This document shows, one piece after another, positions 2-21,248 of a stretch of 64,000 nt of DNA (position 1 is the first letter of the stretch; each line of letters starts with the position of its first letter). The translations under genes and the position numbers were made by a program. A model generated the notes under the pieces. That model was given only the letters and a program-made list of their open reading frames with translations, had not been told where the DNA came from and did not search any database. The stretch is from Sphaerolaimus hirsutus (taxonomy: Eukaryota > Nematoda > Chromadorea > Monhysterida > Sphaerolaimidae): assembly GCA_964036195.1 (NCBI GenBank), contig OZ038453.1:21662352-21726351 (forward strand), given 5' to 3'.

Positions 2-3000
2 CCTGATTCACAACCAGCTAATGCTCTTGCACAGCAAGTACCTGTCAATTTGGACCCCAATTTGTCACAAAATGTCACTCCTCAAAATCCGTTTGTCGAA
101 AGTCGACAACGTCACATTCCTTCAAATCCATTCGAAATCGACATTCGGCGATTTTCAACACTGTCAAAATTGTTGCGTACTGTCGTATACCTGCTTCGTG
201 TCAAAACATATTGGCTAAATCGCTCCATGCACAAAGCTGCAAAGCGCGAAAGCGAATATTTATCAAAACCCATCACACAAGCTGATTTAAACGAAGCATT
301 TAGACATGTATTGCGCATTTCACAGGCAGAGGAATGTGCCAGTTGCATTTCACAAGCGCAACTTGGCAAACACCACATGCTCAAATGGGACGCGTGGAAT
401 AATTTATTATATTGTGTCACGCGTGTATCTCACAAAGAACTCAGAAACCCTTCGTTGTTTTACTACCTGCCAAAGACCGGGTGGTTAACAACGCTAGTGG
501 TTACTCATTTTCATGAGCTTGCTGGTCACAGTGGCATGCTTCACACTTTAGCAGATTTACGCGAACACTGCTGGTTGTCAAGCGCCAAGCAGGTAGTTGC
601 AAAAATTTTGCGAAAATGTGTCACATGCCGCAAAGCGGAAGGAGGTCCATTCACGTTACCTGATTTTCACACATTACCTGTCACTCGAACTCAATCACAA
701 ATCAAGCCATTTCAACATATTGGCATTGATTATATGGGACCGTTAGTTTATTCACAGAACGGAACCCGTCACAGTCAACACATTTTGTTGCTAACATGCT
801 TCAGTACACGCGCCATTCATTTAGAGTCAACCAATAGTGTCTCGACAGTCGACACAATTATGGCTCTAAATCGTTTTATTTCACGTCGAGGCATGCCGGA
901 CACCATTTGGTCCGACAATGCCCCAGCATTCAAAAATTGCGTAAAAATGCTACCGGACGTAAAGTGGCATTTTATCACAGCCAATAGTCCATGGCAGGGC
1001 GGCGTGTACGAACGCATGGTCGGCTTAGTCAAACGCTTGCTCAAAAAAGCATGCGGACGACGTTGTCTCACATGGCATGAATTTCTCACAGTCATGCTTG
1101 ACGTCGAATTCTCCGTCAATACGCGACCATTGTCATACTTGTCAAACACAGACATTGGTGCAGCGATACTGCGCCCAATACATTTTCTTTGGGGCACCCC
1201 ACCACCATGTTACATGGATGAAAAACGTGAGTTGGAACTCGATTCCACCACGATTGAACCCATGCAAAAAATTCCAAAAGAGGAATGGGAAAGAATGACG
1301 GATGGATCTTTCAACCTCACGCCTTCACAAATCGAAAAAACCTACACACTCACACCCCCACGTGTCAATGACGTCAACTGCATTGACGAAATTGCACTCA
1401 ATTCTGTGCCTGAAAAGGACAGAGATGACATCACATTACTTTGGGACCAAATTCGTCACAATCGTGAAGTGCTTTGGTATGAGTGGTCACGTCAATACAT
1501 TGACCTACTCAAAGATCGAGCTAAAAATCAACGCTTGAAAAGAGGCACAATCAACGAAGCTCCCAAACGTGGCCAAGTGGTGTTAATCACAGATGATAAA
1601 CAACCACGCGGCATGTGGCAAATGGGCCGCGTTCACGAAATACACGTGTCAAGCGATGGCAAAATACGTGCAGTCACAGTATTGTCAAGCAACGGTCGTC
1701 GCACACGTAGATCTCCATCTAACCTAGTGCCTCTGGAAATCGACACAGAGGACGGTGTTGAATATAAAATCGACACTGAAGTAAAAGATGATGATAAGTC
1801 ACAACCTTCACCTGATAAGGGTGATGATTCACAAAAAGATCAATCACATCAACAATCACAATCTTCACAGCAAGATGCAAGACGCACAAACCCACGTCGA
1901 ACATGTCGCTACACTGGCACATATTCGTTCTGGGGAAACGTGTCGCATTTAATGGCACTTTCGTTGCTAATACAATCAAAATTAGCTAACGCACTCACAT
2001 GGACAGATCAATATCACAAAACTTTCAATCTGTGCCATAAAACACGCACTGGTCACGCAATTCAACTTCCAGAAAAAGTAACATGTCACTTTCCTCAAGT
2101 CACAGCTATAGAGGATATTGTGGTATCCATATGGACGTTGCGTGTTCAGCCGCAAACAACACCAATTTATAGATGCTTTCAACAAGAGCATACTATAGTC
2201 ACGTATATGAGCCTGGTGGGCGGAAAAGCTATGCTGCCACCAGAAATCATAAAAAACCACAGAGTCACAACCTACGATTGCATGATCGCCTACCAAAATA
2301 AAACTTGGAAAGGCGAACCCTTAATAAAAATCGGTCATGCATTGTGGAGCACTAACAAATCACTTCACATCGATTATTGTTACTTTTGTCACAATCTGAG
2401 TAACACAGTAATGAACTTTCACATAGAGGAAGGTGTGGTTGCAAGTCTTGACGGAAAGAAAATAGTTTCCGAAATTCAAGATCTGTCACATTGCAACCCA
2501 CAAGCCGGCTATTGTTATGACAGCGACAATGGCGTCTCTTTATGGAATGCTACCGCATTTAACAAGCAGTGTGCATTCCAAGAGATTGGTCAATTTGATG
2601 CGCAATATTCACAGAATCACTACATAGTGGAAAAATTGCAAGCTGCATTTTCTGTCACATGGAGATCACAACAATTCCCAAATAATGCAGAATGCGTGCC
2701 AAAAGACGCAAAATACATTGACCAGGGCTCGGCATTCATTCAATTTCTTCGATATCAACTTAAGAAATTGAAAAAACCTGAAACAGAAAAAGCTCCTCTT
2801 CATTTCAAACTCGCACCAAATCTGGATGTTGGTGTGTTTCACTTGCTCACAGCCCGTCAACAATACGAAGTTGACAAAATTGCACATCTAGAACAAAAAC
2901 AATTTGGATCAATCTGGCAACAATTATGTCACATCCGTCAGACCCAACTAGATATAATTCATGCAATTGTCACATTCAATCCCACACTTGGCTTGCGAGC

Positions 3001-4852
3001 ATTGCTAGGACGTCAAAATCTCTATGCTGAATGGCATGGAGATATATTAATGTTCTGGGATTGTAAACCAGTCACAGCAGAAATTATTTATTTTCAACAT
3101 GAATATAACAATACATGTTATAAATTTCTGCCGGTCAAAGTCACAAATCACCCACATATTATGTTCGTAGCTCCTGGCACCAATGATCTGATCACACATT
3201 CACCAATAGATCATTGTCTCATGAAAGATCACAAATATTATCAATTAAATGATAATTCATGGGCCAACGAAAATGGACCAACGAATTTACACGTCACAAA
3301 ACTCCCAATCGAATTAATTTGGGCTGGCTCGTGGAAACCATTCACACTAAATGTTTCCGGGTCACCAGGTGTAAGCATGACTGACATTGCATTCAGTATC
3401 ATGGCTGCACATCATCACTTTCAAAATTTGCAACGACTTGAACAACAAGTCACACGTTCAGTTGATTATATTGCAACAAAATCCAACGATCCTAAAGCAG
3501 TGCAAGCATATATTGCTGGCATCGGCCAAGGGGTTGGTGCATATTTTGAAGGTGTAGGAAAAGAATTGGGTCACATCATTCACGGTAGTGTCACAGGTGG
3601 TGCGTCTGCATTAGATACGTTACTTACTGGGCCACTTCAAACAGCTGTGAACATTATACTCATTATTCTCACAATCGCCTGTATTGGGTATATTGGTTAT
3701 GTTTACATGCAGTGGCGGCTCGTAACCGGCAGGGGTATGCTGCCAGACATCAAGGGCTTTTTCCGAAGAAAGGGCAGAAAGGACAGAAACCCAAACAAAT
3801 GGGAGCCCCGCCCGTTCAACAAGGAAAAATCGGTAAGCGACGGCGACGTAACCGCCAGAAGAAGCCGGCAAGCGGTTTCAACAAACCCGCTTTGTCAAAC
3901 CAAATCGTCACACAATCGTCACAATCGTCAAGTTCGTCACAGTTACCTTCAAAGTTTGTCACACCCCTCAAACGAGTTTCTCCATTCAAACGGCTTTCAG
4001 GACGCACGGTACAGCCTAGATCGGATCCCCCGGTCGGTTATAGTACCGAACGCGCCGAGGAAATCGAAATGGAGACGGGGGCGCGCCGGGTCACAAAACC
4101 TGCACCCTCCTGCGAGTCACAAACGCAGAGCTCGTCACCAAACGCCAGACTCACAGTCACCGAGCCTGTCACAACGGAAGTCACAATGGAAGACGCGATC
4201 CCTGACCGCGAGCCCTTGCAAAAGCGACTCAAGAGATTCGCTGGAGTCGCAGGGCTCCCAGGTGAGCAGAAATTGTCACACCAAACATTTTCCTTTATAC
4301 CCCAAACTTTTCACAAATTCAATAACATCAATCAAAAACTGGTCAAATCAAAAGTTAAACGATCTAAAAAGATCTGTGACCTTCCTCAGACAAACACCTT
4401 CACAGTCCGACATAGAGCTCGGAGAGATGGAAGAAAGTCACGATCAAGAACTAGATCCCCCACCGTACCATTTGACCAATTCAACTCAATCACTTCACAG
4501 TGTACGACCTCATTCACAACCTCCCATGTCCCCTTGCTATCAAGCCAACCGCTTGCAGCATCGGAGCAATGGCAGCCCACCGAGCCGTCGAGGGCGATCG
4601 TCGACGAGACCGACGCGCTCCGACAAGCCTTCGAGAGGCTCGCCGAGGAATCTGAGAAGCTCCCCAACTGGCCGGGACGACCAGCGGGGGCCCCAGAAGA
4701 CCAGGCGCCCGGACACGGGGAAGGCAGCCAGCCTGAGGAGGATGCCGTCGAACCCATGGACGAGCATCATGAGGAGGGCCGGGAAAATGCCGGCGTCGAA
4801 GACGCCGACGATCTGCTACCACAGGAGTGATGAGAGTATCACAGGCGTTTGA
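2..4852 (+). CDS. Integrase-DUF5641-envelope polyprotein of BEL element, copy 1 (5' partial)
   Basis: The frame is open from base 2 to a stop at 4850-4852 (over 1,600 codons), so it continues from outside the window. Domains in order: the BEL-type linker before integrase (about 110-240); an H2C2 zinc-binding domain (about 505-640); the integrase core with Asp near 727, Asp near 914 and Glu near 1009 (SDNAPAF and WQGGVYERMV context); and a DUF5641-like domain (about 1440-1735, PRGMWQMGRV). A signal-peptide-like stretch follows (about 1940-2000, MALSLLIQSKLANAL), then a cysteine-rich ectodomain, a glycine-rich membrane-proximal part and a transmembrane segment (about 3645-3710). The last 370 codons are Ser/Arg-rich and overlap another ORF. 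Fusion of the envelope in frame with pol suggests release by proteolysis. The integrase assignment is firm; the envelope role is inferred from topology. Confidence 0.88.
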   Translation, partial: PDSQPANALAQQVPVNLDPNLSQNVTPQNPFVESRQRHIPSNPFEIDIRRFSTLSKLLRTVVYLLRVKTYWLNRSMHKAAKRESEYLSKPITQADLNEAFRHVLRISQAEECASCISQAQLGKHHMLKWDAWNNLLYCVTRVSHKELRNPSLFYYLPKTGWLTTLVVTHFHELAGHSGMLHTLADLREHCWLSSAKQVVAKILRKCVTCRKAEGGPFTLPDFHTLPVTRTQSQIKPFQHIGIDYMGPLVYSQNGTRHSQHILLLTCFSTRAIHLESTNSVSTVDTIMALNRFISRRGMPDTIWSDNAPAFKNCVKMLPDVKWHFITANSPWQGGVYERMVGLVKRLLKKACGRRCLTWHEFLTVMLDVEFSVNTRPLSYLSNTDIGAAILRPIHFLWGTPPPCYMDEKRELELDSTTIEPMQKIPKEEWERMTDGSFNLTPSQIEKTYTLTPPRVNDVNCIDEIALNSVPEKDRDDITLLWDQIRHNREVLWYEWSRQYIDLLKDRAKNQRLKRGTINEAPKRGQVVLITDDKQPRGMWQMGRVHEIHVSSDGKIRAVTVLSSNGRRTRRSPSNLVPLEIDTEDGVEYKIDTEVKDDDKSQPSPDKGDDSQKDQSHQQSQSSQQDARRTNPRRTCRYTGTYSFWGNVSHLMALSLLIQSKLANALTWTDQYHKTFNLCHKTRTGHAIQLPEKVTCHFPQVTAIEDIVVSIWTLRVQPQTTPIYRCFQQEHTIVTYMSLVGGKAMLPPEIIKNHRVTTYDCMIAYQNKTWKGEPLIKIGHALWSTNKSLHIDYCYFCHNLSNTVMNFHIEEGVVASLDGKKIVSEIQDLSHCNPQAGYCYDSDNGVSLWNATAFNKQCAFQEIGQFDAQYSQNHYIVEKLQAAFSVTWRSQQFPNNAECVPKDAKYIDQGSAFIQFLRYQLKKLKKPETEKAPLHFKLAPNLDVGVFHLLTARQQYEVDKIAHLEQKQFGSIWQQLCHIRQTQLDIIHAIVTFNPTLGLRALLGRQNLYAEWHGDILMFWDCKPVTAEIIYFQHEYNNTCYKFLPVKVTNHPHIMFVAPGTNDLITHSPIDHCLMKDHKYYQLNDNSWANENGPTNLHVTKLPIELIWAGSWKPFTLNVSGSPGVSMTDIAFSIMAAHHHFQNLQRLEQQVTRSVDYIATKSNDPKAVQAYIAGIGQGVGAYFEGVGKELGHIIHGSVTGGASALDTLLTGPLQTAVNIILIILTIACIGYIGYVYMQWRLVTGRGMLPDIKGFFRRKGRKDRNPNKWEPRPFNKEKSVSDGDVTARRSRQAVSTNPLCQTKSSHNRHNRQVRHSYLQSLSHPSNEFLHSNGFQDARYSLDRIPRSVIVPNAPRKSKWRRGRAGSQNLHPPASHKRRARHQTPDSQSPSLSQRKSQWKTRSLTASPCKSDSRDSLESQGSQVSRNCHTKHFPLYPKLFTNSITSIKNWSNQKLNDLKRSVTFLRQTPSQSDIELGEMEESHDQELDPPPYHLTNSTQSLHSVRPHSQPPMSPCYQANRLQHRSNGSPPSRRGRSSTRPTRSDKPSRGSPRNLRSSPTGRDDQRGPQKTRRPDTGKAASLRRMPSNPWTSIMRRAGKMPASKTPTICYHRSDESITGV
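3712..4830 (+). CDS. Overlapping ORF (about 372 codons) within the envelope tail of BEL copy 1
   Basis: This frame lies wholly inside the last part of the pol-envelope frame. It starts just after the transmembrane segment and ends 22 bases before the main frame does. The track-style start is a GTG; the first ATG comes about 30 codons later, so expression would need splicing, frameshifting or that ATG. It encodes an arginine-rich block (GKRRRRNRQKKP), a Ser/Thr-rich middle, two more basic patches, and a helical, strongly acidic C-terminus (ETDALRQAFERLAEESEKL). No homologue recognised. The frame is also open in the second BEL copy (60010-61161, minus). An arginine-rich protein overlapping an envelope tail resembles accessory genes of complex retroviruses in position only; function unknown. 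Confidence 0.6.
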   Translation: MAARNRQGYAARHQGLFPKKGQKGQKPKQMGAPPVQQGKIGKRRRRNRQKKPASGFNKPALSNQIVTQSSQSSSSSQLPSKFVTPLKRVSPFKRLSGRTVQPRSDPPVGYSTERAEEIEMETGARRVTKPAPSCESQTQSSSPNARLTVTEPVTTEVTMEDAIPDREPLQKRLKRFAGVAGLPGEQKLSHQTFSFIPQTFHKFNNINQKLVKSKVKRSKKICDLPQTNTFTVRHRARRDGRKSRSRTRSPTVPFDQFNSITSQCTTSFTTSHVPLLSSQPLAASEQWQPTEPSRAIVDETDALRQAFERLAEESEKLPNWPGRPAGAPEDQAPGHGEGSQPEEDAVEPMDEHHEEGRENAGVEDADDLLPQE

Positions 4853-4929
4853 TTTTGATTCACATCAATTTGCCGAGATTGGCTGAGATAAAATTAAATT
4901 AAATTTAATTTTCATTCTAGTTTCGGGAG
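4853..4929 (+). other. Leader between envelope stop and 3' LTR, BEL copy 1
   Basis: It contains an AT palindrome (TTAAATTAAATTTAATTT) and ends TTTCGGGAG just before the LTR. A purine tract for plus-strand priming is expected here; only the short CGGGAG is visible. Confidence 0.5.
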
Positions 4930-6026
4930 TGTGTAACATTATCGTAAAATGTAAAAACCTATAATATTTAAGTTAACTTTCTTATGTTCTCTTTTATATT
5001 CAATTAATTCAACTTGTCAAGATTTCATTCATATTTACATTCCCATTTTAACATCTTCACATTAACCAATTAATATCTCAAGCGATGTTGTTTACAACGT
5101 GCGCTTCACATCGCTCACATATTTAGATCTTAGTCATTGCTCACATTCCGCCACATTTCCTTGACAAGCAGCACGCAAATACGCCGTCATGTTTATGTTA
5201 AGCGGCGGGCCCGCTCCGAGCGGGGCGCCGGGCCCGCGCGCCATTTCAAATGCTGTCTGGCTTGTCTCACATTTTCACTATCTTGCCAGTTAAGCTCGCT
5301 TTTCATCGGAGAAGCAAGCGGGCAAGGATTGAACTTTCACAATTGGAAATGTTGGATAAAAATCGGAGATTAGAGCCGACCGATTGGCGCCAAACAAATC
5401 GCCATCGGTCTGGCCCTTAAAAGCCGATTTCACAGCTAAAATCGGCAGTGTTTGCAACCTCGTCAACTTCACACGAATCTCTTCCTAGGATCTAAATAAG
5501 CGCCGTAGTCACCTTATTAAGTCGCTTGTTTTTGGTGCTAAGTTTAACGCTTGGTGCTTTAAGTCACCTCAGTGCTTTATTTCACACCAGCGCTGTTTTG
5601 AGGTGCTTTATTCACAACCGCGCCACTTAATTCTCGCCTTTTGTCGTAATTAAGTGCCTTTAAATTGCCTTATTTCTCCGGTAATTAGAGCTTCTTTTAC
5701 GTTTTATTTAAGTAATTAATTTAGTTGTAAATTAATTCCTTTGTTTACGTATATTTTGATATATATTTTATTTACATTTAATTCTTTGTATTTAATCGCC
5801 TAAATAAAAACGTTCGTCAAAACCTTTGGTAAACAATCTAAATTTGCTTCACATTAACTCACGTCAATTCACTTCAACTCAACTAATCACATTTGATAAA
5901 ATAACGGAACGTCAACTAGAGACGACGCTTCACGTCAACTTACACTTGTTCACATTTGTCCTCTTCCTCGGTTAGGAATAGGAGCTGGTTCACAAGTCAC
6001 TTCAACAAGTTCCGCATTATTTTACA
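4930..6026 (+). repeat. 3' LTR of BEL copy 1
   Basis: Begins TGTGTAACATT and ends ATTATTTTACA, so the ends are TGT...ACA. The length is 1,097 bp; the matching LTR in the other copy is 1,099 bp. It holds a GC-rich block near 5200-5245 and many TCACA pentamers. The right boundary is well supported by loss of identity between copies. The left boundary is inferred from the TGT/ACA symmetry and the abutting CGGGAG. Confidence 0.8.
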
Positions 6027-8082
6027 CGGGGGGCGTCAACATTCTTTCCCATAGCGACGCGGCTGGGCGCCCAAACAAAAGTGCGCACGGCATGGTGCCC
6101 ATTGCCGGGTGTTTTGACGTATTGTATGCGTGCACCGCGGCGCCTAAATGGTAATCCCAATCGGAATGGGTTTGGTTTACGTAATGGGACACGATTTCCA
6201 TCAGAACACCGTTCTGGCGCTCCACCATTCCGTTGCCCTTTGGCATATACACAAATAAGCGATGCTGAAGGGTATTGAAATACAATAACAATCTTTTGAA
6301 TGCCCCTTCGACAAAGCTTGGCGCGTTATCGCTCAAAATGGCGCCGGGCACGCTGAATATGGGAAGAATGTGTAGCAAGAATGCAAACGCTACAGTATCC
6401 TGCCGGATATCGGGTACCAGCACAGCGATGCCGAATCGCGTGCACTGGTCAACAAAAACCAACACGTGTTTATGCCCGCGTTGCGTGCGTGGCAAGGGGC
6501 CAACGGCGTCGACTGCGATGACATCGCCGGGTGATCGCGCGATTTTCCGGCACGCCATCAAAGTCTGCATCGACTGCCTAAGCCCTTTTCGCGCACAACA
6601 CAAAGGGCACGTGGCGACCCAATGCGCGCTTTCCGGTCGCATATTTGGGAACCACGCGAATTCCTGCAATCTTTCGAAAGTTTTCATTATTCCCAGGTGT
6701 CCAGCTGTGGGGTGATTGTGCGCTAGTTCGAACACTAGCGGACACAAAGATGCTGGAATACACACAGGATCATACAACTTGATCCCCGGTACTATTGAAG
6801 CCTCAGCCCTTTTTTGCATGATTCCATACTGATCAATAAAAAACGGTGGCATGCATTGCCCAGGCGCATCTTTACATACTTCCATCAAATTCACTATGTA
6901 CGCTTCTTGCATTTGCAAACGCTTTAATTCCATTATGGGTACAAACGGGGGCAAAACGTGATCAGTGTGAAACCCATTTACGCGCACTTCGGTGGCCGCG
7001 GGGCCACCAGCCATTGTTTGTGGACCTACGGTAGTGAATCCGGTAATTGGCGCCACCCCATTGTTCGCCGGCTGTCGCGTGTCCATTGTCCCGGGGTTGC
7101 AATCACGCGCAGCAGACTCCGCCCTCGCCCGCGCGCGCGTCCTCATTGGCTCCTTGGTAGGCGCGCGTCTGGAAACAGTAGCTACCGTATCCCACGGGTT
7201 GATTGCGGTCTGCGTCGCGACATTTTTGTTGTGTGATATTTTAATTAATGCAAATTGCTCAAATGCTTCGTCAAGCTCTAATTTTTCATCGAAAGTTATC
7301 GGCGCGTCGCGCCTTCGGGATAGAGCGTCTGCGAGCTCATTGCACTTCCCTTTCAGGTGCTTGAATGTAATTTGATAAGGGGCAACAGCCAGCGCAAACT
7401 TATGCAATGCGGCGTGTGGGGTGGCCTCCAAATTGGGGTTCTTCACCCAGGGAATACTTTTTGCGTCGGTCCACACTTCAAAGGGGCGTCCCGCCAGATA
7501 ACAGTGCCAGTTTCGAATGCTCTCAAAAATTGCATAGGCTTCTAGAGTGATGGCGGGCCATCTGCTCTGAACCTTGGTCAGCTTCCGGCTGTAGAAAGCA
7601 CATGCATGCAGTCCAGACTTCTCGTCGGCGCGCTGCACCAGCACTCCAGCGACCGCAATTTGTGACGCGTCTGTAATTACGATGAATGTTTTATTTGGGT
7701 TCGGGTATTGCAAACAGGGGCTGTGTAATAGAATTTCTTTTAATTGGAAGAAAGCTCTCAGGGACTCAGGGTTGTCGTTGAGGTCTACCGGCGCGTTTCC
7801 ATCATAATTCTCACGCGGGCCAGTGCGTGTCAAATTTGACAGCGGCACTGCAATTTCAGCGGCATGGATCATGCGTCTGAAAAATCCCACCGCTCCCAAA
7901 AACCCTTTGACTTCCTTGACAGTTTTTGGGAGGGGCCATTCTGAAATAATATTACGCTTGTCCATGGGAATGCAGATGCCCTCGTGGCCGATCATGAAGC
8001 CCAGAAACTTTACCACAGTGATGTGTGCGAAAAAACATTTTCGGGGACTAATTTTGAAGTTATTTTTGATTAATCGATCCAA
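6022..8082 (-). pseudogene. RNase H and integrase part of the Ty3-like pol, truncated by BEL insertion
   Basis: 686 codons. It begins in the RT connection (FKISPRKCFFAH, FLGFMIGHEGI). An RNase H domain follows (VITDASQIAVAGVL, a Glu in ITLEAYAI, WTDAKS, ending ADALSRR). Next come an H2C2 zinc domain (HNHPTAGHLG...CPLCCARKG) and an integrase core with Asp in DVIAVDAVGPL, Asp in AILSDNAPSF and Glu in GNGMVERQNG. The frame runs into the BEL LTR: the last codon and stop come from bases 6022-6027 of the LTR. The integrase C-terminal domain is therefore missing here. The catalytic residues are all present. It is the same reading frame as the RT segment at 8119-8412, from which it is separated by two in-frame stops. 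Confidence 0.9.
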
Positions 8083-8100
8083 AATTTGGCCAATATCACT

Positions 8101-8626
8101 TCAATGAGTTTCCCAGTCCTAACTGTAAATTAGCAGGTCGTCAATGTACAGTAGCACATTGTGATGAATCAATCCAGCCATGGCAAGCTCAAAACATCTC
8201 TGCGCCAAACTCGGTGAACATTTTAATCCCATAGGTAATCTCTTTAATTGAAATTGGCCAAAAATGTTGCGGAATGAGGTGATATGTCTGTCGTCAGGAT
8301 GCAGTGCAATGTTGTAAAACGCCTGATTAATATCGGCGCTGCTAAAAAAACTTGCAGTTGCTGAGTGCATCCACGGGGTTGTCCAGTCTCGGCTGTGGAA
8401 ATTGCGGTGCATGCAAAACCAAATTTAATCGCCTGTAATCAATGACCATGCGTTTGGAACCATCAGGTTTGGAAACGACTAATGTGGGAGCGCAATATGG
8501 GCTTGTACTTGTCTCAATAATGTCATGTTCAATTAGACAGCGCAGGTGCTTTTCTAAGTACTGCTGGTCATCCAGGCTCAACCGATACATGTGGCACGCA
8601 ATCGGTTTTCGATCGGTTAATTGCAA
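8101..8626 (-). pseudogene. Reverse transcriptase segment of the Ty3-like element, broken
   Basis: Two open pieces, 8342-8626 and 8119-8412, together cover the RT fingers and palm. Visible motifs are SKPDGSKRMVIDYRRLN, FSSADINQAFYNIALHP, LPMGLKCSP and the catalytic YIDDLLIYS. Lesions: an in-frame TGA (8627-8629) separates RT from the envelope-protease frame; a run of seven T (8344-8350, A on the plus strand) shifts the frame; and TAG (8119-8121) and TGA (8101-8103) follow the catalytic motif. Four defects in about 530 bp contrast with none in the neighbouring long frames. The domain identity is certain. Confidence 0.9.
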
Positions 8627-11600
8627 TCAATAATCAACTAATTCGCTGTACCCTATGTTGTACTTGTGCCTTGCAAAAGCACCTTTGTGCTTCAAAAGTA
8701 CGGCCGCAAGTTCCTTACGCTCACTTTCTGACAGTGTTTTGGGCACAGAGAATTCCATTTCATGTCCGTCTGGACATTTCACATGCAATGGCTCACCTAA
8801 TTGGTCTTCAATTACTTTTTCTGGGGCGCTCGAGGACGCTGGTTCCGCTGCCTCGCTGGCGCGACACCGTTGCATGCATTCCTCAGGGGGGTCGCCGGCC
8901 TTGACTTTCAGGACACAATTGACGGGCTCGACCAATCCGATTTTTTGTTCCGCCTGTAAAGTAACTGGCTGATCACGAACATTTGCGACCCTAATTAAAA
9001 ACACATCGTCGCTTGTTTCGTATGCTGCGGATGCGGCAACTATTCCATCTTTCAAATTTACGGATTCCAGCCCGGTGACAGTAAACATACGGTAGCTAAC
9101 TGGGGCTGACAGGCGCACCGGCACCATTGCTTCATGCCTCACCTTGATTTCGGTAGCCGCCGAAACTAATGCAAACACTGCATGAATCTGTACGTCAGGC
9201 TTGTGATTATCAAATGGAACACTGACGCCTACTGATGGGATTTTTAATAGGCCCCCGGGCATGTCAATTATCATGTGTCTCAGCATGTCCGCGCCCAAAA
9301 TTAAATTGTCAACCAGACCGTCGATGGCTTGGAAGACGACACGAAAAGTGTGTCCCCCAATTTCAATTGGCATTTCTAGTTGACCAATTATCATTAGCTT
9401 GGAATCCGCAGCGCATCGCATGTGGGAAATGGGAGAAGTCTCTTCAACTGCATCATGTCCGTGACGATGCTCCTGAAACACGTCTCTGCTGCATAGTGAA
9501 CGCATGGCGCCGGTGTCCAGCAGACATCTGTGATACATGATACCGTCCATGCACACTGGCACTGCAGGACTGTAATAAACATGCACGGGTCCATTTCGCC
9601 TCGCGACGACAGATTTTATATTTTCCTGCTCATCTTTCGATAGCCTAATCATTCTAATTCTCTCTACCGGTGGGCTCATGGAGATTTCAGCCATTTCAAG
9701 TTGATGATTATATTCAATTGATGGAAACATCTGTACCTTTACCGTGTCATCTGGTGCGCACTCGGACGCACCTGTTGTCGGGTTCAACACGGTCAGGCGG
9801 CCGTCATAGCTTTGCATAAAGCTTCGCTTACCGGCGTCTCTGTGTCTGGTAATTAGCAGCCTTGACTCCCGCCGCAGTCGCCGGCGCGCACGCTCAATTA
9901 GCGTCGTAGCTGCCGGAGGCGCGGCGGCTAGCAGAGCTGCTAATAAATACTGACACGTTACTACAGCACACACTAGATAAATCCATATCTGCAGCCATGA
10001 CCTCAGGGCGTCAAAATCCCAAAATCCCACGCTCACTATTGACCTTGCCATTAACTGGTGCAATTGTAAACTGCCGTCAACTGCATGCGCCGGCATTCCA
10101 TGCACGCGCCGTACAATCGCGTATGAGTGCCATACGTCATTCAGCATGGTGGTCGGCAACAACTCAGTGAAATTGTACATTGTTGTTGCGGCAAAAATCT
10201 GATGGTGCACATCGGTCGGTCGCTCGAGCTGCCATCTGTGTGGGAAACTGTGGGTATTGTAAACTGGGATATGTTCCAGGGCACCTTTCTCAGGTAAGTA
10301 CTTATACCACTGCCCATGCAATTTCAGTACACGGTTGTGGCAATTTGTGCATGTTCCCATAACCGGTTGAAACAGAAGGGCATTTGTAATGGTATTCAAA
10401 TGCAAAGTCACGTTCTGTCCATGTAGTTTCATTTGAATGGGGACTGTAGCGTGGCACGCGCCTTTACCTGTTTCAATGCCCAACTGATAAGTCTTTACCG
10501 CAAAGCACTTATGCACTAGAAATCCGTCCGGCGCCGCCTTGGCCAAAATTTCATTGTCGCGCATGTACCAGCGCGCCGTTGTCGTAGGGTGTTTGGTCAT
10601 GGCTAGACGGAGGAGTTCCTGGAAATGTTGCACATGCCTACAAGTAGACACGGCCTGCGCGCACATAGTTTGCTCAGAAGTTTCATATACTGCTTGCATC
10701 GCTGCAGCCAAGTGACCAGTGTCCACTACGCCAAATCCAGGATGCGCTGCACGGCGCTTCTCACGCACGTACCTAATTGGGGGGATTTTGAACGGTGCCA
10801 CGACAATATCCTGGTCTGATTTCCATAATTTTTTACCACATGAAAAAACTTCTTCTTTTGATCGGAACAACAATGCCAAAGTGTGATCACGCGCAAGCCA
10901 AATATCTTGTCTAATTAATCCGGCGATCTCTTGCCATTCTTTGTAAGGGCATTCCGCCTTTGGATTTGGTTTCCAGACTAATTGGCTGCCGTCTGGCAGG
11001 GTGCATGTACCCTCCTTGTAATTACACTTTGACACTTCTCCTAGCATACTTCGCATGACCTTGGCCCCGTAGCGCATGCATACATCTCCCTTGAACAGCC
11101 CACACTGCGGGGTTTTAGTAATTAGCCAACTGCAACAGTACAGCCCATGCCCCAAATAACTTACGTTCGTCGGGTATTGCGTATCCCATGCATTGCTCAG
11201 CTCGTCAACTGGCTGGAGCGTGCCGTTGTTGCACTTGTGGTACTTCATCATGCTCTCGCATTCCGAGGGATCTACTGCACGCGGCTGCAAGTCAAAATGT
11301 TCCAAAGTGACGTCACCCCAGAAGTTCTGGTATGTATGGGCCGACTGTGTGGCCGCTACACATCGATACGCAGTGGCACAATACTCTACCATATTGCGTT
11401 TGTAAATTGTGAGTTTCAGGGGAACAGGCTTAGTCAAAGACACAGCAGAATTGACTAACGCTGTGCAATTAGGCAAGTCGGGGTAGGTGTACAGGTCGTA
11501 GTGGTCGGTCAGGTCGCTGCACAGCAACGGCGTGTCTGGCATTGTTGAAGCCACCGCCATGGGCACCAAACTCAAGCACGCCATCACCACGGCGATGGTG

Positions 11601-11701
11601 AACACTGTAAACAGGGTGCCAAAAATTTGATTATTATATGGGGGTTCAGAATAAGCCCGCTGGCTCGGCACTGCAGACGTTTTGTCTCTGAATTCGGCCA
11701 T
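8627..11701 (-). CDS. Envelope-like glycoprotein fused to retropepsin (Ty3-like element)
   Basis: The frame opens at 11746 with GTG, overlapping the gag stop as GTGA; the first ATG is at 11701 and is chosen here. Residue numbers count from 11746. A signal peptide lies at about 41-67 (hydrophobic, ending PMAVAS). The ectodomain at about 68-583 has many cysteines and N-glycosylation sequons. A furin-like site YVREKRR lies at 326-332, followed by Ala/Gly-rich sequence, and a transmembrane segment at about 585-609. A basic cytoplasmic stretch follows, then a retropepsin with LLDTGA (742-747) and NLILGAD (814-820), and a linker reaching the start of RT. In Ty3-like elements the envelope normally follows integrase, so this position is unusual. 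The envelope call rests on topology and the cleavage site; the protease call is firm. Confidence 0.85.
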   Translation of the reverse strand: MAEFRDKTSAVPSQRAYSEPPYNNQIFGTLFTVFTIAVVMACLSLVPMAVASTMPDTPLLCSDLTDHYDLYTYPDLPNCTALVNSAVSLTKPVPLKLTIYKRNMVEYCATAYRCVAATQSAHTYQNFWGDVTLEHFDLQPRAVDPSECESMMKYHKCNNGTLQPVDELSNAWDTQYPTNVSYLGHGLYCCSWLITKTPQCGLFKGDVCMRYGAKVMRSMLGEVSKCNYKEGTCTLPDGSQLVWKPNPKAECPYKEWQEIAGLIRQDIWLARDHTLALLFRSKEEVFSCGKKLWKSDQDIVVAPFKIPPIRYVREKRRAAHPGFGVVDTGHLAAAMQAVYETSEQTMCAQAVSTCRHVQHFQELLRLAMTKHPTTTARWYMRDNEILAKAAPDGFLVHKCFAVKTYQLGIETGKGACHATVPIQMKLHGQNVTLHLNTITNALLFQPVMGTCTNCHNRVLKLHGQWYKYLPEKGALEHIPVYNTHSFPHRWQLERPTDVHHQIFAATTMYNFTELLPTTMLNDVWHSYAIVRRVHGMPAHAVDGSLQLHQLMARSIVSVGFWDFDALRSWLQIWIYLVCAVVTCQYLLAALLAAAPPAATTLIERARRRLRRESRLLITRHRDAGKRSFMQSYDGRLTVLNPTTGASECAPDDTVKVQMFPSIEYNHQLEMAEISMSPPVERIRMIRLSKDEQENIKSVVARRNGPVHVYYSPAVPVCMDGIMYHRCLLDTGAMRSLCSRDVFQEHRHGHDAVEETSPISHMRCAADSKLMIIGQLEMPIEIGGHTFRVVFQAIDGLVDNLILGADMLRHMIIDMPGGLLKIPSVGVSVPFDNHKPDVQIHAVFALVSAATEIKVRHEAMVPVRLSAPVSYRMFTVTGLESVNLKDGIVAASAAYETSDDVFLIRVANVRDQPVTLQAEQKIGLVEPVNCVLKVKAGDPPEECMQRCRASEAAEPASSSAPEKVIEDQLGEPLHVKCPDGHEMEFSVPKTLSESERKELAAVLLKHKGAFARHKYNIGYSELVDY

Positions 11702-11742
11702 TTTATCAACACTTGTGCTTGAAAACGTATGCGGGGACAAAA

Positions 11743-12699
11743 TCACGGGGGTTCATTTAGAAGTGGGTCTAATGGGGTGTCACGCAAAACCCTCCACTCG
11801 ATCCTAGTGAGCGTGTCATTGTGGTCATCATGCGGGCGACAATCTGGGAGCACCACACAGTCTTCATCCTTCAGATCATGCATTGCAGTGCGCCACAGAT
11901 AATCCAACCAACTTGTACGAAATAGGATCGACATGGCTTCGCGTTGATACGCCCAGTGGCTGATCCACTGTTCCCGGTCCACCATAAGCGCATGCATTTT
12001 ATAATGAAGGCTAGCTGCAGGTTGCTCCTCCATTTCCTCCTCTTCTTCTTCAGGGGCTTCCGGTTCCAGCCCTTGCAATGTCAATAGTTGATCATGATGG
12101 AAGAGAATTCTAGCATACGACGGCAATGACTCGGTCACGGCCTTATAAGTGCATTTGCCTACCTGCGTCACCGTCGTCGGGTCCAGCAACGGCACACTGC
12201 TACTCTGGCCTTGCTGCGATTCCAACGGCTGTTGCGCCGGCTGTGGTTGCGGGCGCCACCTGATGGCCACGGGCTGCTGGCTCTGAGCGTATACAGGCTG
12301 CATCATCTGCGAAGAGGGCACAGTCATAGGTTGACTCAATTGCATTGGTACCCATCCACCTGGATACCCAAAATTTTGTGGGTATTGCCCGCCCTGTCCA
12401 CGGCCTTGCCCTCGTCCCCCACCTCTACTGCGCGCGCGAAAGTCGCCTCCGCGACCGCGCTGATTAGTATCATTGCCGGCAGACGGTTCGGGAGGGGGCC
12501 GATTTGGACACTGATAACGAACATGATCGGGAGACCCACATTCCCAACACCCATTTTCAAACCTCTTGGGCAGCAACTCACGCCTCGGGCGCGGCGCGCC
12601 CATCATCTTAGCTTCCTGGGCGTCGAGCTTTTTCTGTCGCTCGTCGAGTGCCCGTTCCTTGGCCTTGAGCTTCACATTCTCTGCACTCTCGGCCTCCAT
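11743..12699 (-). CDS. Gag C-terminal part with nucleocapsid zinc knuckle (Ty3-like element)
   Basis: 318 codons. It opens with a charged coiled-coil stretch (KLKAKERALDERQKKLDAQEAK). A CX2CX4HX4C knuckle follows (CWECGSPDHVRYQC), then an RG/RGG-rich tract typical of nucleic-acid binding, a Gln/Pro-rich region and an acidic patch (EEEEEEMEEQ). It ends in NEPP with a stop that overlaps the opening codon of the envelope-protease frame by one base set (GTGA). It overlaps the preceding gag fragment by 28 bases in another frame, so in this copy gag is broken. Confidence 0.85.
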   Translation of the reverse strand: MEAESAENVKLKAKERALDERQKKLDAQEAKMMGAPRPRRELLPKRFENGCWECGSPDHVRYQCPNRPPPEPSAGNDTNQRGRGGDFRARSRGGGRGQGRGQGGQYPQNFGYPGGWVPMQLSQPMTVPSSQMMQPVYAQSQQPVAIRWRPQPQPAQQPLESQQGQSSSVPLLDPTTVTQVGKCTYKAVTESLPSYARILFHHDQLLTLQGLEPEAPEEEEEEMEEQPAASLHYKMHALMVDREQWISHWAYQREAMSILFRTSWLDYLWRTAMHDLKDEDCVVLPDCRPHDDHNDTLTRIEWRVLRDTPLDPLLNEPP

Positions 12700-13109
12700 C
12701 GACTGATCGAGGGGTGCAGGTTCATGGCCATGATGCGCTCCATGACCTGGTTCGATGTCTCGGCGACGATCTTGCTGGCCGACTTCGCATGTTCCTTCTG
12801 AACGGTTTCAAGGTTTTTGTAACTTTCTTGCATGTGCGCGTTATCAACTAATTCCTTCCAACTTATATTGGCATGCACCACCAAATTACGCCTAATGTCT
12901 TTATCCAACCCCTGGTGAAACTTGGTGATGCACATGCCTTCCCTTTGGGCGGAATGCAGCATTGGATATGCGCGCTTTACCGCGCGTTCCAATCTGGTTG
13001 CCCAGTCTAACACAGATTCAGTGGGACTTTGGGTTGATTCAATAAATTCACGCTGCGCATGATGCTGAGCATTTGGATTTGCAAAAAGTTCTTCCAAACG
13101 GTCCATCAT
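12672..13109 (-). pseudogene. Gag capsid C-terminal fragment (Ty3-like element)
   Basis: 145 codons. They resemble the retrotransposon gag C-terminal capsid domain: RLEELFANPNAQ, then EFIESTQSPTESVLDWATRLERAVKRAYP and FHQGLDKDIRRNLVV, the usual pattern of a short Q-P-E-S stretch followed by helices. It overlaps the gag pieces on both sides in a different frame, entering by +1 and leaving by -1. That is what an insertion followed by a compensating deletion would give. Confidence 0.8.
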
Positions 13110-14310
13110 GGCCTTGTAATCTAGCTACAAAAATGGAATTTGCATTCTTTTGCAAAAAGATAGGCAGCAGCTTTTGCCTAGAGCGCATTGAGACACCTAG
13201 CGCATCGCATAAAATATCCCACTTACGTCTCCAGTCCTTGAAACTTTTATCAGCCCTTCCCATGAATGCATTGCACTGCGTAGCCAGGGCGGTCAGCGTA
13301 GCGGCCGTGCCGTGTGGCACCTGGTGCTGCGCCAAATAATCTGGATCCGTAGGATTAGGTGCAGGTGATATCAATCCTGACGATCCTGGGGAAGAGGGGC
13401 CCGGCTGTCCTGCCAAATTGATTACACTGGTAGCTGGTTGGGCCATAGCATTTGCAGGCGCAGGCGCCGTTCCGCTGCCGCCCGCTGATCCACTTACGCT
13501 CACCGGCGGGGGCACAGTCTGCACGGTTGTGTTCCCAGGGGTTGTTCCCGCGCCTAAGGTAGCATTAGCTGCAGACGCAATGGGCGCAATTAATCCCCTA
13601 TTAGAACAAAATGCCAAAAATTGAGTGGTAGCCTGCTCCAGCGCGCTAGGATTGCCTACGCTGGTATACATGCTCATGCCTAGCCTAATGGCCTGTAGCT
13701 TATTTTTATCTGCTGTAGAAGCATTAATTGAAATCGCCACGGGTCCCGCGCGAGTGAGTTCCCCAGACCACTGGTGCAAAAATTGTATCATGCCCGGAAA
13801 GGTCCAACCTTCTCTAGTGTACCCTGTGGTTTCCCTGCCCGGATCCGCCGCGGCCGCCGCCGTAAAGATCTGGCCCGGCGTCACTTGGTTGGCCGCCGCC
13901 GGGGTGATCGTTATCGTGGTGAGCGTGCCCGGCGCGGTCGTCACGCTTGTACCTTGGGGCGGGGTGTTAGTCATTATACTTTGATTTATGGGAGACGGTC
14001 CTACGATTCTGCGACGTGCTCTATTCAAAGAGACACCGCTTTCAATCGAGCCTTGCGCTGACGCAAGCTCGCGTGGTGTGGATGAACTTCGCGGGGCACT
14101 TAATTGAAGCTCCCCCAATGAATTTTCCGCCTCTTCGAGCTCTTCGGCTAATGAGGGAAATTCAATATTTATATCTGGGATCGCTACTGGGGTGTCAATT
14201 AGATTTACGGAAGTCTCACCGCTTCTACGCTGGTATGCAGACGAACTCACGGGCTCGTCTTCACCAGCGTACCCTGCTGAATCAGCCTTTGATCCAGACC
14301 CTGTCGACAC
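13048..14310 (-). pseudogene. Gag N-terminal/capsid fragment (Ty3-like element)
   Basis: 420 codons, Ala/Thr/Pro/Gly-rich and probably disordered for the first 300 residues. A capsid-like start follows (FKDWRRKWDILCDALGV...LPIFLQKNANSIFVARLQG). The same frame is open upstream from 14607, interrupted by an in-frame TGA at 14344-14346. The last 20 or so residues are out-of-frame sequence after the shift into the next gag piece. Confidence 0.75.
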
Positions 14311-14343
14311 CGGGGAACTACGGCCGCTTTTTCCCCAAGGTCG

Positions 14344-14828
14344 TCAAAATAAACCCCACTTACTTGATTTCCGCTGCTCTCGCCTGGGTTCAGCACTTAC
14401 TGGCCTGTCGGGTCGCAGGAGCGGACTATCTGGTGGGCATTCTGCTTCTGTGCCTCCACTGGACGCTCGTCGAGCCGCCCCAGTCGGTAGCGCACCTGGC
14501 GCGCAAGCCAGCGTATCCCAACGGCTGCCGCCTGTTCCTGCACGTGCAATTCCAAATTGCAGCACTGGCCGGACGACGGGAGTGCTATCCTCTGTGCATC
14601 GGTCCAAGTCGCTGCTTCCTGTGCGCGCTCGGCTTCTGCTTCTGCTTCCTGCGCACCTGCTTCAACTCTTACCTGTTCAACCTCAGCGTCCTGCGCGTCC
14701 GCAGTCTGCTGTGCCCTGCGCAAAGCCGCCTCTCGGCGCGTGCGCTTCTGTAGCTGTTCTGCAGCTCTCCACACTTCCTCAACTGACCCTGGGATCGACG
14801 CTGGCCCTCCTGACCGCAGCGTTTCCAC
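14344..14828 (-). pseudogene. Probable gag N-terminus (coiled coil), Ty3-like element
   Basis: From the ATG at 14828 about 85 codons form an Ala/Glu/Gln/Arg-rich coiled-coil stretch (VEEVWRAAEQLQKRTRREAA...AEAEAERAQEAATW). A protein-like Pro/Arg-rich stretch then continues in another frame (14344-14607), which is the frame of the next gag piece. I infer one original gag with a frameshift near 14580 and a TGA at 14344. Either piece could be chance. Confidence 0.45.
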
Positions 14829-14889
14829 CCGGCGCGACAGATCGTTTGTTGCTTATCACTTAATGGCTTGGCGTTGATCAGGCGCCGCA

Positions 14890-16560
14890 CCGTTCACTGA
14901 AGTGAATTAAACAAACCACTCGCTGCTACCAAGTTGTCATGAATCCGTGTATTCAGCTGTTTTTTGTCTACACGATTCAGAGCGTTTTTACTGCACGTTT
15001 TCCCTCTATCTCCACTTCACCGACTGCTTGCCGCTGCAGTGCACTGCACTGGGCCCAGAGGTCCAGATTATAAATGCGTGTGTAAATTTTAAGGAAACGT
15101 GTCCGAAGACGGTAGGTTTTTTCAGAACGTGCAGTGAACCACTCGGTGGCTCACGCTGTTCCGTTTCCCGCAGCACGCACAGCACCTACACCTAGCGCAA
15201 GCAGCGCGGCAATTAGAGCAGTTGTTAATTAGCTAACTTAGGGAAAACAGTTAGTACTTAGTGCTAATACAAAAGGGGGTCCGAGTTGGGTTGAGAAGAG
15301 AGTTTATTTTTTTAGGGCGATGGAAGAACAGTAGCGGCAGAGTAGAAGCAAAATCAATTTTTGTTGAATCGAAGAATTGGGTAAAAAACAACAATTTCAG
15401 CTACTTATAAGGCAATTGAAACTACCATAATTGACAGGAATAAACAGTTAAAAAAGGCATAATATTACATAGGTACACAATCACTATCAAATCACATAAG
15501 CTCTGATGTAAATACTTAGTAAAATCTTGACACATAGCTACCTATGAAAAGAGTACCAATTAAGCTAATAAAAAAGGGGCGGTAATAATTAAGAATGGCT
15601 AATATCAATAATTAAAAAGGCTTCATGCGACATGGGGCTTAATGTACAATTCACTACATCACTTCAAAACAGCAATTATCTACTTCCATAATTACCTACA
15701 AATCCCTACTTAATCTAACCTAATCTAGAACAGGTAACAACACAGTGCAACGCATATTTACAAAGAACAGGAATGAATAAAGTATGGACAAAGGCAATTA
15801 CGGCGTCACAAACTAATACAGAAAATCAAGCTAACAAGTAATTAGACAATGATTCCAGCTTACAACTAATGTTAATTAATTAAGATGCAAGGTGATTAAT
15901 TAAGCTCGTGGGAATGAAAGGTACTGGCGTGAAACAATATGTACAATTATTTCTACATGTCACATGGAAACTCTATGTGGGGGCTTTGTATTCATAAGTT
16001 ACGGTAGCTAGCGAAATGCTCGCGGGCGCGAAATGCTTATCACCTCCAACCCCGCAACCCACTATTGTGACTATCCGGTCAGCTAGCGCCCGTGAGAAAG
16101 GTTTCAGCCCGATGGCCACACCCTTCCGAGCGCGAGGAGATATTTATGCTGGGGCGGCGGAAAAGTATTTTTTTGGACTGCGACTTGTCACTTGGGGTGT
16201 TATCAGAAGCTGTTCCTACCACCCACCGATACTAGATGACGCGCGACAATCTAGTCAACATGGGGAGGAACGCGGAACAGTTTTAATTTTGGTATTTTTT
16301 GAGTGAAATTCATTGTTCCTGGCTTCCGGTCGCCACCTACTTACCAGTCGTCAGTCTCCGCCTCTGCCCAAAGATAAGTAAAGGGTGGAACGTGCTTTAG
16401 ACCGCCCAGAAAGTCACAACAGTGTGCCGGCGAACTCAAAGGCGGCCACACGCTGCGTCGCGGCACTTCAAAGTGAAAATTGTGAAATTTCTCCTCTCAC
16501 CTTATGCCACGTGGAATGTAGTTACACTTAAGCTAGACAAAACTTAGCTAACTTTACTAA
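14890..16560 (-). other. Putative leader and 5' LTR region of the Ty3-like element
   Basis: No coding sequence seen. On the plus strand GCTGCTACCA (14922-14931) reads like the 3' end of a tRNA, as a primer-binding site would on this strand, and TGTCATG follows three bases later (from 14935) as a possible LTR edge. A TATA-like TTTATAA lies near 15068-15078 and another near 15405 in minus orientation. Without the partner LTR none of these limits is proven. Confidence 0.35.
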
Positions 16561-16610
16561 AATAGATCTGGCGCACAAAATTAGTAATTAAAATTGGGGG
16601 GTAAGGAAAC

Positions 16611-16785
16611 GAAATGGTGCAGAGCACTACAACCACTAGAAACATGGCGAACTCGGTCTGCCAGTGAAGCGGCGTCGATCTTGCGATGCAGTGCTTGGCC
16701 GGGGTACTGCACAGCCCACTGCGTAGCCGCGCATGCCGCGCAGTCCCCGTAGCCGTTGAAAAGCCGCCGAAATGTCTGAAAAAGT
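16611..16785 (-). CDS. DUF4817-like exon or fragment
   Basis: A GC-rich island in AT-rich surroundings. On the minus strand a pyrimidine tract and CAG precede an open stretch with YGDCAACAATQWAVQYPGQA and later LADRVRHVSSG. The spacing (Tyr-Gly, small helix, aromatic-Pro-Gly, then a Leu-Arg helix) matches the DUF4817 helix-turn-helix domain that is common in arthropod transposon-like proteins. No continuation was found, so it may be a solo exon or a relic. Confidence 0.35.
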
Positions 16786-16949
16786 TTAATCAAAGTTAAT
16801 TTACAAAACACCTAGCAGTTTACGTTCCGTGAATTATTATTGCATTTGGTTGTCTGAAATTTTGTGGGGTGGTGTCTTTCCCATCGTAAAAAACACTCTT
16901 ACATGATCATATAAACATGCCATTGCTGGCGCCTATTATGTCTGGGAAT

Positions 16950-17170
16950 TTTTGTGGGATTGGGATTGGGGTTTCGGGATCAGGATTGGGTTCTGCAAAA
17001 TTTCGGGATTGGGATTGAGATTTTGAGATTTCAGGATTGGGATTGGGGCTTTGGGATTGGGACCACAACATTGCAACAACCCCTCCCCACCAAAAAATCT
17101 TCAACCATGTATCCCTCCAGAGGAGTGATTTGTTATCTATCCAACCCGCTGGAAGGTCAAAATTCAAGAT
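16950..17170 (+). repeat. GGGATT-type simple repeat and 'CTATCTATCC' interspersed repeat end
   Basis: 16950-17065 is a degenerate GGGATTGGGATC array related to the CCCGAT arrays of the hAT-like elements at 45-48 kb, but without readable ends. It is followed by CTCCAGAGGAGTGATTTG and the GGTCAAAATTCAAGAT ending. Versions of that ending recur near 21060-21130, 30670-30735, 31560, 32510 and 53180-53255. Confidence 0.5.
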
Positions 17171-17570
17171 CCCCCGGATAATCCTCAAGAATTCCACATC
17201 TTATTTAGGTAGTTGTTTAGTTACATAGAGTTGAAAGTTATTCATTATCCATATGCACAGTGTACTTTACACAATAATAATTTCCAGTTGTATCAATGGT
17301 TGGATTTTTCTTGACAAACTAAGATAAAATACTTTCTCGTTTACCAGACAAAAGTTTGGCAGATTGCCATGTTGGGTGCCTTACATGCATGCACCTTATG
17401 TACAAATTCCATTTGATGCCTGACACCCAACAAAAATGCCTCTAACATCATAATTTTGGTAATATTCTCATTCAGAATCTATGTAAATAGGTCCAATAAT
17501 TATAATTCATATAAATAGCATCATCAACAAGTATTATATTTCACAGATTCTGTGCAGCTTGAGGAAAATT
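17171..17570. other. Gene-free AT-rich stretch
   Basis: No coding, RNA or repeat structure recognised. It lies just beyond the 3' end of the first gustatory-receptor gene. Confidence 0.5.
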
Positions 17571-19998: not shown

Positions 19999-19999
19999 G

Positions 20000-20560
20000 A
20001 AGCCACATTATTGTACTTGATACTTAAATAAGTCAAAGAGTAATATCAGAAATCAGCATATCAACAAAAGATTGTAAATACCTAAATACTTATCTTGAGG
20101 CAGTCACACTCCCCATTTAACATCATGTAAGGTGCTAGAATTAGAAACCTGCAAACCACAAAAATAGAATCTGCAGGTTTTCCCAATCATTTTAAGTGTT
20201 GAATGATCAAAATCAGCCCAGAAATGGTCGAGTGATTAAGCTTCAAAGACACTCATCCAGATTGCCCTTTTTTGTATATTTATTGACCATCTTTTTATAG
20301 ACCCCCCTTATCTTGGGCCTGGGGGATTATTTGAGCAAACAAATTTTTTTCGTAGTAGCCCCAGCATCAAACCCCAACATACTCAAACAGCATCAAAATT
20401 GGGCAAGGGACAAGAAATTGGGAAGCAAAAAACGTGCGGTGGACCCACAACCTACCGTTTCTCTATGTGTGAAAAGTCTCAACTATTCTGCACGGTAGTG
20501 TATTTACAGAAAGTTTTTGGATTGGGGTTGGGCACATTTGCCACACATTTTAGGCTACTT
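20000..20560. other. Gene-free stretch
   Basis: Nothing recognised except scattered low-complexity sequence. Confidence 0.4.
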
Positions 20561-20571
20561 CTTCAGCAGGC

Positions 20572-20759: not shown

Positions 20760-20789
20760 CGGCCCAATTGGGTGCACTATAATCTCAAG

Positions 20790-21130: not shown

Positions 21131-21248
21131 CCCGAAGAAGATTCAACATTACTCAAGATGTAAATAGGTCCAATTCATTATAATTTATATAAACAGCATC
21201 ATCAACAAACATTATATTTAACAGATTCTGTGCAGCTTGAGGACACTT

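What the first reader, a model, noticed from the sequence alone, without database searches (positions are those of the whole stretch)
6027..14828. Envelope-like gene placed between gag and protease in a Ty3-like element
On the minus strand, gag ending in a zinc knuckle is followed by a signal peptide, a cysteine-rich ectodomain, a furin-like site (VREKRR) and a transmembrane segment, and only then by retropepsin, RT, RNase H and integrase. In the Ty3-like and retroviral elements I know, env follows integrase. The frame is intact for over 1,000 codons, so this is not a chance juxtaposition of fragments. It could define a lineage with a different gene order.
Basis: partly seen in the sequence, partly recalled or inferred. 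Interest (0 to 1): 0.88.

Follow-up and report, generated by a model that had tools for sequence, protein, structure and literature searches.

The report
Retroelement with envelope between gag and protease
A family of virus-like jumping genes in an unnamed, probably animal, genome carries its envelope protein in the middle of its gene string instead of at the end, in many copies, which hints at an unusual way of making a retrovirus-like particle.

Summary
On the minus strand a Ty3/gypsy element reads gag, envelope-like glycoprotein, protease, RT, RNase H, integrase. It is no one-off chimaera: the glycoprotein piece has 72 matches in the host genome, 57 full length at 91-100% identity (49 of 57 without a stop) and 3 stop-free ones of a second subfamily at 65%. 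In 18 of 20 loci read, gag C-terminus, glycoprotein, protease and the start of RT share one open frame. Glycoprotein dN/dS is 0.00-0.06, like gag and protease. It matches the chuvirus-type fusion family PF24664 just above cut-off, not the F type of errantiviruses. The window's copy is dead: frames are broken in gag, at the gag/glycoprotein junction and in RT, and a BEL/Pao element cuts its integrase at 6026/6027. I prefer a Gag-Envelope-Pol polyprotein with a membrane-spanning envelope inside; differential splicing is the main rival. Not examined, because the genome server answered once: LTRs, anything after integrase, copies without the glycoprotein, and RNase H-integrase of the other copies.

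The parts
14397..14828 (-). short ORF upstream of gag; possible gag N-terminus or leader (weak)
   Evidence: ORF of 143 aa, no Pfam match at E <= 1
13048..14310 (-). gag, N-terminal piece of this broken copy
   Evidence: ORF of 420 aa, no Pfam match at E <= 1; its C-terminal end matches, by eye, the gag-side translation of L007 printed
12672..13109 (-). gag, capsid piece
   Evidence: weak PNMA and Retrotrans_gag matches, below cut-off; same in copy L007
11743..12699 (-). gag, nucleocapsid and C-terminal piece
   Evidence: zf-CCHC match residues 50-66, below cut-off; dN/dS 0.071 against L007
12502..12552 (-). zinc knuckle
   Evidence: PF00098, E 0.012, below cut-off
8627..11746 (-). one 1039-codon frame: envelope-like glycoprotein, protease, start of RT
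   Evidence: in other copies open and continuous with gag
11549..11605 (-). hydrophobic segment, internal signal sequence or signal anchor (inferred)
   Evidence: Kyte-Doolittle 2.44, residues 48-66
10214..11032 (-). glycoprotein region matching PF24664 Monjiviricetes_fusion
   Evidence: 27.9 bits, cut-off 27; 34.9 bits on the piece alone
10751..10768 (-). furin-like site VREKRR
   Evidence: REKRR in 18 of 18 other loci examined
9920..10009 (-). C-terminal transmembrane segment of the glycoprotein (inferred)
   Evidence: two overlapping Kyte-Doolittle peaks, residues 580-609
9275..9562 (-). retropepsin-like protease
   Evidence: PF13975 E 0.0012 on the ORF, 0.00024 on the piece, both below the curated cut-off
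8122..8626 (-). reverse transcriptase, in two frames with stops (broken)
   Evidence: PF00078 54.7 bits on the in-frame piece 8122-8424; piece 8345-8626 matched no family; frames
7429..7770 (-). RNase H
   Evidence: PF17919 98.4 bits, PF17917 86.9 bits
6268..6759 (-). integrase, zinc-binding and core part; C-terminus cut off at 6027
   Evidence: PF17921 56.3 bits; PF00665 31.1 bits, below cut-off 32.6
850..6026 (+). BEL/Pao element whose 3' end interrupts the integrase (not part of the element; limits what can be seen)
   Evidence: 97% identical to 58806-63999; shared sequence ends at 6026 and 58806 with different bases beyond

Best explanation
It is one damaged copy of a multi-copy, env-bearing Ty3/gypsy lineage whose envelope, a chuvirus-type fusion glycoprotein, sits between gag and protease and is read in the same frame as both. 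Most likely mechanism (inferred): genomic RNA is translated into a Gag-Envelope-Protease(-Pol) polyprotein; the hydrophobic segment before the ectodomain sends the nascent chain into the ER and is cut by signal peptidase; the second hydrophobic segment stops transfer, so Gag on one side and protease-RT on the other stay in the cytosol; a furin-type protease cuts the ectodomain and the element's own protease frees Gag and Pol. Envelope would thus be made with Gag rather than from a separate env mRNA, and the particle could bud and enter new cells. Shown: gene order in the window, common frame from gag C-terminus to the start of RT in 18 of 20 loci, purifying selection on the glycoprotein, a second subfamily with long open frames around its glycoprotein. 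Inferred: polyprotein translation, topology, processing, entry function.
For: 72 matches in the host genome, 57 full length at 91-100% identity (window's copy included), 49 of these 57 without stops; 36 of 57 are stop-free and inside open frames of 2175-2178 codons, far longer than the 621-residue query; 3 matches at 65% identity with open frames of 2223, 2227 and 1807 codons and no stops. Glycoprotein frame open over the whole locus in 18 of 20 loci, gag to start of RT. dN/dS of the glycoprotein against L007: 0.057 for the window's copy (dS 0.52), 0.00-0.059 for the other 18; protease side 0.00-0.131 (18 loci, window's copy included, L006 too short); gag C-terminal part 0.00-0.062 (16 loci) and 0.071 for the window piece. 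Variable sites are mostly at third codon positions: 176 of 214 in 13 loci, with 55 of 62 on the gag side, 68 of 86 in the glycoprotein bins and 53 of 66 beyond (my sums of the table). REKRR in 18 of 18 loci, the 4 sequons of one of those loci in 18 of 18, 19 of the 23 Cys of the window's copy in all 18. PF24664 above cut-off in two copies. Ty3 pol.
Against: No RNA or protein data. Frame continuity was read only to the start of RT; beyond that there is only the open-frame length, which suggests that the frame does not run through all of gag and all of pol if gag begins where the window's copy suggests. LTRs, target-site duplication, RNase H-integrase and anything after integrase were not seen in any other copy. 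Copies are related, and L009, L010 and L011 are identical and may be one. PF24664 is a weak match. Structure prediction failed (mean pLDDT 27.6), so a fusogen fold is unconfirmed. 12 of the 72 matches hold stops, and 4 of 23 Cys and 1 of 5 sequons of the window's copy are not shared by all or by the reference locus. The glycoprotein aligns with the BEL glycoproteins of the same window at only 22-23%. 57 relatives by RNase H-integrase list no PF24664, so no relative with this architecture was found, but only proteins of limited length were candidates.
Confidence: 0.5

Rival explanations
1. Same lineage and gene order, but expressed by splicing: unspliced RNA gives Gag or Gag-Env, a spliced RNA drops the glycoprotein like an intron and joins gag to protease in frame, and perhaps another makes Env alone.
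For: Env of insect errantiviruses comes from a spliced subgenomic RNA (PMC12992720, passages). In Cer1 of C. elegans the CERV protein, four of whose five exons share the polyprotein frame, is made from a spliced mRNA (PMC10309623, passages). Excision would solve the problem of 1:1:1 products.
Against: If Env were only made from its own mRNA or always spliced out, nothing obvious would keep it in frame with gag on one side and protease on the other, yet 18 of 20 loci keep both. Splice sites were not tested.
Confidence: 0.38
2. The glycoprotein has lost its entry role and serves inside the cell, for example as a membrane anchor that targets Gag-Pol to a compartment for assembly.
For: A fusion to Gag and protease is odd for an entry protein; no fold could be predicted.
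Against: Furin-like site and four sequons, and 19 of 23 Cys of the window's copy, are kept in the 18 loci compared, features of an exported ectodomain.
Confidence: 0.1
3. Chance juxtaposition, chimaera or assembly error: the glycoprotein belongs to another element that landed in this copy.
For: The window's copy is broken in several places and lies beside BEL elements that carry distantly related glycoproteins.
Against: Same order from gag to the start of RT in one frame in 18 loci on many contigs, 72 matches in all, selection on the glycoprotein; only 22% identity to the BEL glycoproteins.
Confidence: 0.01

Closest known systems
Anakin (BEL/Pao element of mosquitoes with a chuvirus glycoprotein; PMC7642597, passages)
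   Same: An LTR retroelement that captured a Jingchuvirales-type glycoprotein
   Different: Pol is BEL/Pao, not Ty3. The passages place the envelope of three other BEL-Pao elements (Roo, Tas, Cer-7) downstream of the polyprotein; the position in Anakin was not stated in what I read
Errantiviruses / insect endogenous retroviruses (PMC12992720, passages)
   Same: Ty3/gypsy pol plus an envelope
   Different: Their env is F-type, baculovirus-related, downstream of gag and pol and typically made from a spliced RNA; here the glycoprotein is PF24664 and lies between gag and protease
Cer1 of C. elegans (PMC10309623, passages; that it is of the Ty3/gypsy kind is recalled)
   Same: No stop between gag and pol, and an extra protein largely in the polyprotein frame
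   Different: The extra part (CERV C-terminal half) lies after pol; CERV is nuclear and does not resemble retroviral Env
Pol relative in Apolygus lucorum (P0017, GE061_000511)
   Same: Sister to the window's RNase H-integrase in a FastTree of 44 sequences, local support 0.93
   Different: 1041 aa; precomputed domains list RT, RNase H and integrase, no envelope. Branches are very long, and P0004 is slightly nearer by distance

Membership tests
Ty3/gypsy (Metaviridae) | RT, RNase H, integrase in that order with Ty3-type sequence | tested here: met
   best solved match Ty3 Gag-Pol 7q5b
Ty3/gypsy (Metaviridae) | Phylogenetic position of RT within Ty3 | tested here: inconclusive
   RT is broken in this copy and was not joined; only an RNase H-integrase tree of 44 sequences without named reference clades
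Ty3/gypsy (Metaviridae) | Two LTRs with target-site duplication | not tested
   3' end off the window; no repeat pair at 3000-18000; flanks of other copies never delivered (server busy)
Errantivirus | F-type (baculovirus-like) envelope | tested here: not met
   Of Pfam families at E <= 1 only PF24664 reached its cut-off on the glycoprotein; no baculovirus F family was listed
Errantivirus | env downstream of integrase | tested here: inconclusive
   Glycoprotein lies between gag and protease; the region after integrase was not seen
Anakin-type BEL/Pao elements | chuvirus-type glycoprotein | tested here: met
   PF24664, 27.9 to 34.9 bits, cut-off 27
Anakin-type BEL/Pao elements | BEL/Pao-type pol | tested here: not met
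   RNase H-integrase matches Ty3 and 57 pol proteins with Ty3-like domain lists, and its integrase is only 24% identical to the BEL integrase of the window. DUF5641, which follows integrase in the BEL ORFs, cannot be judged: that end is cut off

The most novel reading that the evidence does not exclude
A lineage of Ty3-type retroviruses makes Gag, a membrane-spanning envelope glycoprotein and Pol as one polyprotein threaded through the ER membrane, so that envelope, capsid and enzymes are made in fixed proportion without an env mRNA.
Probability: 0.4. Interest if true: 0.9.

Novelty: new variant of a known kind. Interest (0 to 1): 0.76.

Why it matters
In the retroviruses and env-bearing LTR retroelements described in the passages I read, the envelope gene stands after pol. 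A multi-copy lineage with the envelope inside the gag-to-protease frame would show that this order is not required, and makes testable how a membrane glycoprotein can be made from the middle of a capsid-enzyme polyprotein. It would also be a capture of a chuvirus-type glycoprotein by a Ty3/gypsy element. A 2023 survey of arthropod genomes found many Gypsy fragments beside such glycoproteins, in Hymenoptera above all, but no clear evidence of capture by Gypsy or Copia elements (PMC10084718, passages).

Tried and rejected
Rejected: chimaera of one copy. Rejected: baculovirus-F envelope. Set aside: a programmed frameshift at the gag/glycoprotein junction, because 18 of 20 loci are in frame there; L018 is in frame at the junction but broken further upstream.

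Led nowhere: protein-database searches with the glycoprotein-protease ORF and with alignment A1 gave no hit at E <= 0.001 (8000 and 4710 candidates scored); three scans of viral contigs gave no relative; a PDB sequence search with the glycoprotein gave nothing at E <= 1; PHROGs gave only matches at E 0.24 and 0.25; AlphaFold on 3 sequences gave mean pLDDT 27.6, so no fold search was run; no tRNA and no Rfam match at gathering threshold. Left out of counts: L007 was the reference, 19 loci were compared, and L006 was too short for the protease side. In one search, L001, L006 and L018 were left out (frame broken or locus short), the window's gag piece being compared apart. In one search, 13 of 17 full-length unbroken loci were used for the codon-position table; the other 4 were out of register upstream. 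In one search, 43 of 57 relatives were used (matched span over 450 residues).

Literature: ten searches of the open PMC library listed no paper that I recognised, from the titles and abstract starts shown, as describing an envelope between gag and protease. The lists were capped, and papers not held are not covered. Papers seen: PMC12440569 (abstract, one section, passages); PMC5408684, PMC7642597, PMC10084718, PMC10309623, PMC12992720, PMC11673190 (passages only).
Full report
What is in the window. The finding lies on the minus strand. In reading order there are three gag pieces (14310-13048, 13109-12672, 12699-11743), a 1039-codon frame (11746-8627) with a membrane glycoprotein followed by a retropepsin-like protease, RT in pieces, and a frame with RNase H and integrase (8082-6022). 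Pfam supports RT (54.7 bits), RNase H (98.4 bits) and the integrase zinc-binding domain (56.3 bits) above cut-off; integrase core, protease, zinc knuckle and capsid matches are below their cut-offs. The Ty3 kinship is clear: the best solved-structure match of the RNase H-integrase ORF is Ty3 Gag-Pol, E 8.5e-33.

The copy is dead and incomplete. Gag changes frame twice, the junction of gag and glycoprotein is out of frame, and RT has stops and a frame break. The integrase is cut at 6026/6027 by a BEL/Pao element on the plus strand: 850-6026 is 97% identical to 58806-63999, and the shared sequence ends at 6026 and 58806, with different bases beyond. The rest of this copy, including any 3' LTR, lies outside the window.

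The glycoprotein. It has a hydrophobic segment at residues 48-66, a furin-like VREKRR at 327-332, a C-terminal hydrophobic segment at 580-609, and 23 cysteines. It matches PF24664, Monjiviricetes fusion glycoprotein, at 27.9 bits on the whole ORF, 34.9 on the piece and 31.3 in copy L007; the cut-off is 27. The two BEL elements of the window carry a better-scoring member of the same family after DUF5641 (41.9 and 41.1 bits), but the two kinds are only 22-23% identical, so this glycoprotein was not recently taken from that BEL family. AlphaFold with three sequences failed, so the fold is untested.

Other copies. One search of the host genome with a 621-residue piece of the glycoprotein was answered: 72 matches. 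57 cover the whole piece at 91-100% identity (the window's copy included); 49 of these have no stop and 8 have one or more. 12 further rows are partial, 4 of them with stops; two of the 12 lie side by side and are probably one copy. Three rows are a second subfamily at 65% identity without stops. Open frames are long: 36 of the 57 are stop-free and lie in frames of 2175-2178 codons, and the second subfamily has 2223, 2227 and 1807. Counts are lower bounds, as the tool states; a few small contigs may duplicate others (L009, L010 and L011 are identical).

One frame. In 18 of the 20 loci fetched the glycoprotein frame is open from end to end, covering about 500 codons of gag side (in L007, one search finds the zinc knuckle there), the glycoprotein, the protease and the start of RT; L006 is cut by its contig end after about 200 codons of the protease side. 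The two exceptions are the window's copy and L018, whose gag side is broken. What happens further out is not known: if gag begins where the window's copy suggests, a frame of 2177 codons would stop inside pol, so 'one Gag-Env-Pol frame' is not shown to the end of integrase. RNase H and integrase were not read in any other copy.

Selection. Against L007, the glycoprotein of the window's copy has dS 0.52 and dN 0.030 (ratio 0.057); the other 18 loci give ratios of 0.00-0.059. The protease side gives 0.00-0.131 in 18 loci, the gag C-terminal part 0.00-0.062 in 16 loci and 0.071 for the window piece. Of 214 variable sites in 13 loci 176 are third codon positions, with similar shares in the three regions. 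The furin-like site is kept in 18 of 18 loci and 19 of the 23 cysteines in all 18. These are simple pairwise estimates on related copies, but the contrast is large: the glycoprotein seems to have been needed for spread as much as gag and protease.

How it may work. Inferred: a Gag-Env-PR(-Pol) polyprotein, with an internal signal sequence and a stop-transfer segment that leave Gag and protease-RT in the cytosol and the ectodomain in the ER lumen. The conserved frame on both sides of the glycoprotein is the main argument. The main rival is splicing, for which errantiviruses and Cer1 give precedents.

Placement and novelty. The RNase H-integrase part found 57 relatives among 8000 scored candidates, none with PF24664 among its precomputed domains; longer polyproteins were not candidates. 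In a tree of 44 sequences its sister is a protein of the bug Apolygus lucorum, local support 0.93, on long branches. Anakin couples a chuvirus glycoprotein to BEL/Pao; a 2023 survey saw Gypsy fragments beside such glycoproteins but no clear capture by Gypsy or Copia elements. Ten literature searches (named in Tried and rejected) listed nothing that I recognised as this gene order. I file it as a new variant of env-bearing Ty3/gypsy elements.

Limits. After the genome server answered no further request, so LTRs, target-site duplications, dating, the region after integrase, copies without the glycoprotein and the second subfamily's sequence were not examined.

Noticed in passing
850-6026 (+) and 58806-63999 (-): Two BEL/Pao copies, 97% identical and in opposite orientation near the window's ends; in each, DUF5641 and a PF24664 glycoprotein are in one frame (ORFs of 1600 and 1196 codons), so a pol-env fusion frame.
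   Followed up: partly
53742-55222 and 37927-38972: Long palindromes: each stretch matches its own reverse complement, 86.8% and 84.4% identity.
   Followed up: no
17463-23887: A field of related direct repeats, several hundred bases each, 81-92% identical.
   Followed up: no
11743-12500 (-): About 250 residues between zinc knuckle and glycoprotein ORF with no Pfam match above cut-off, conserved in other copies.
   Followed up: partly
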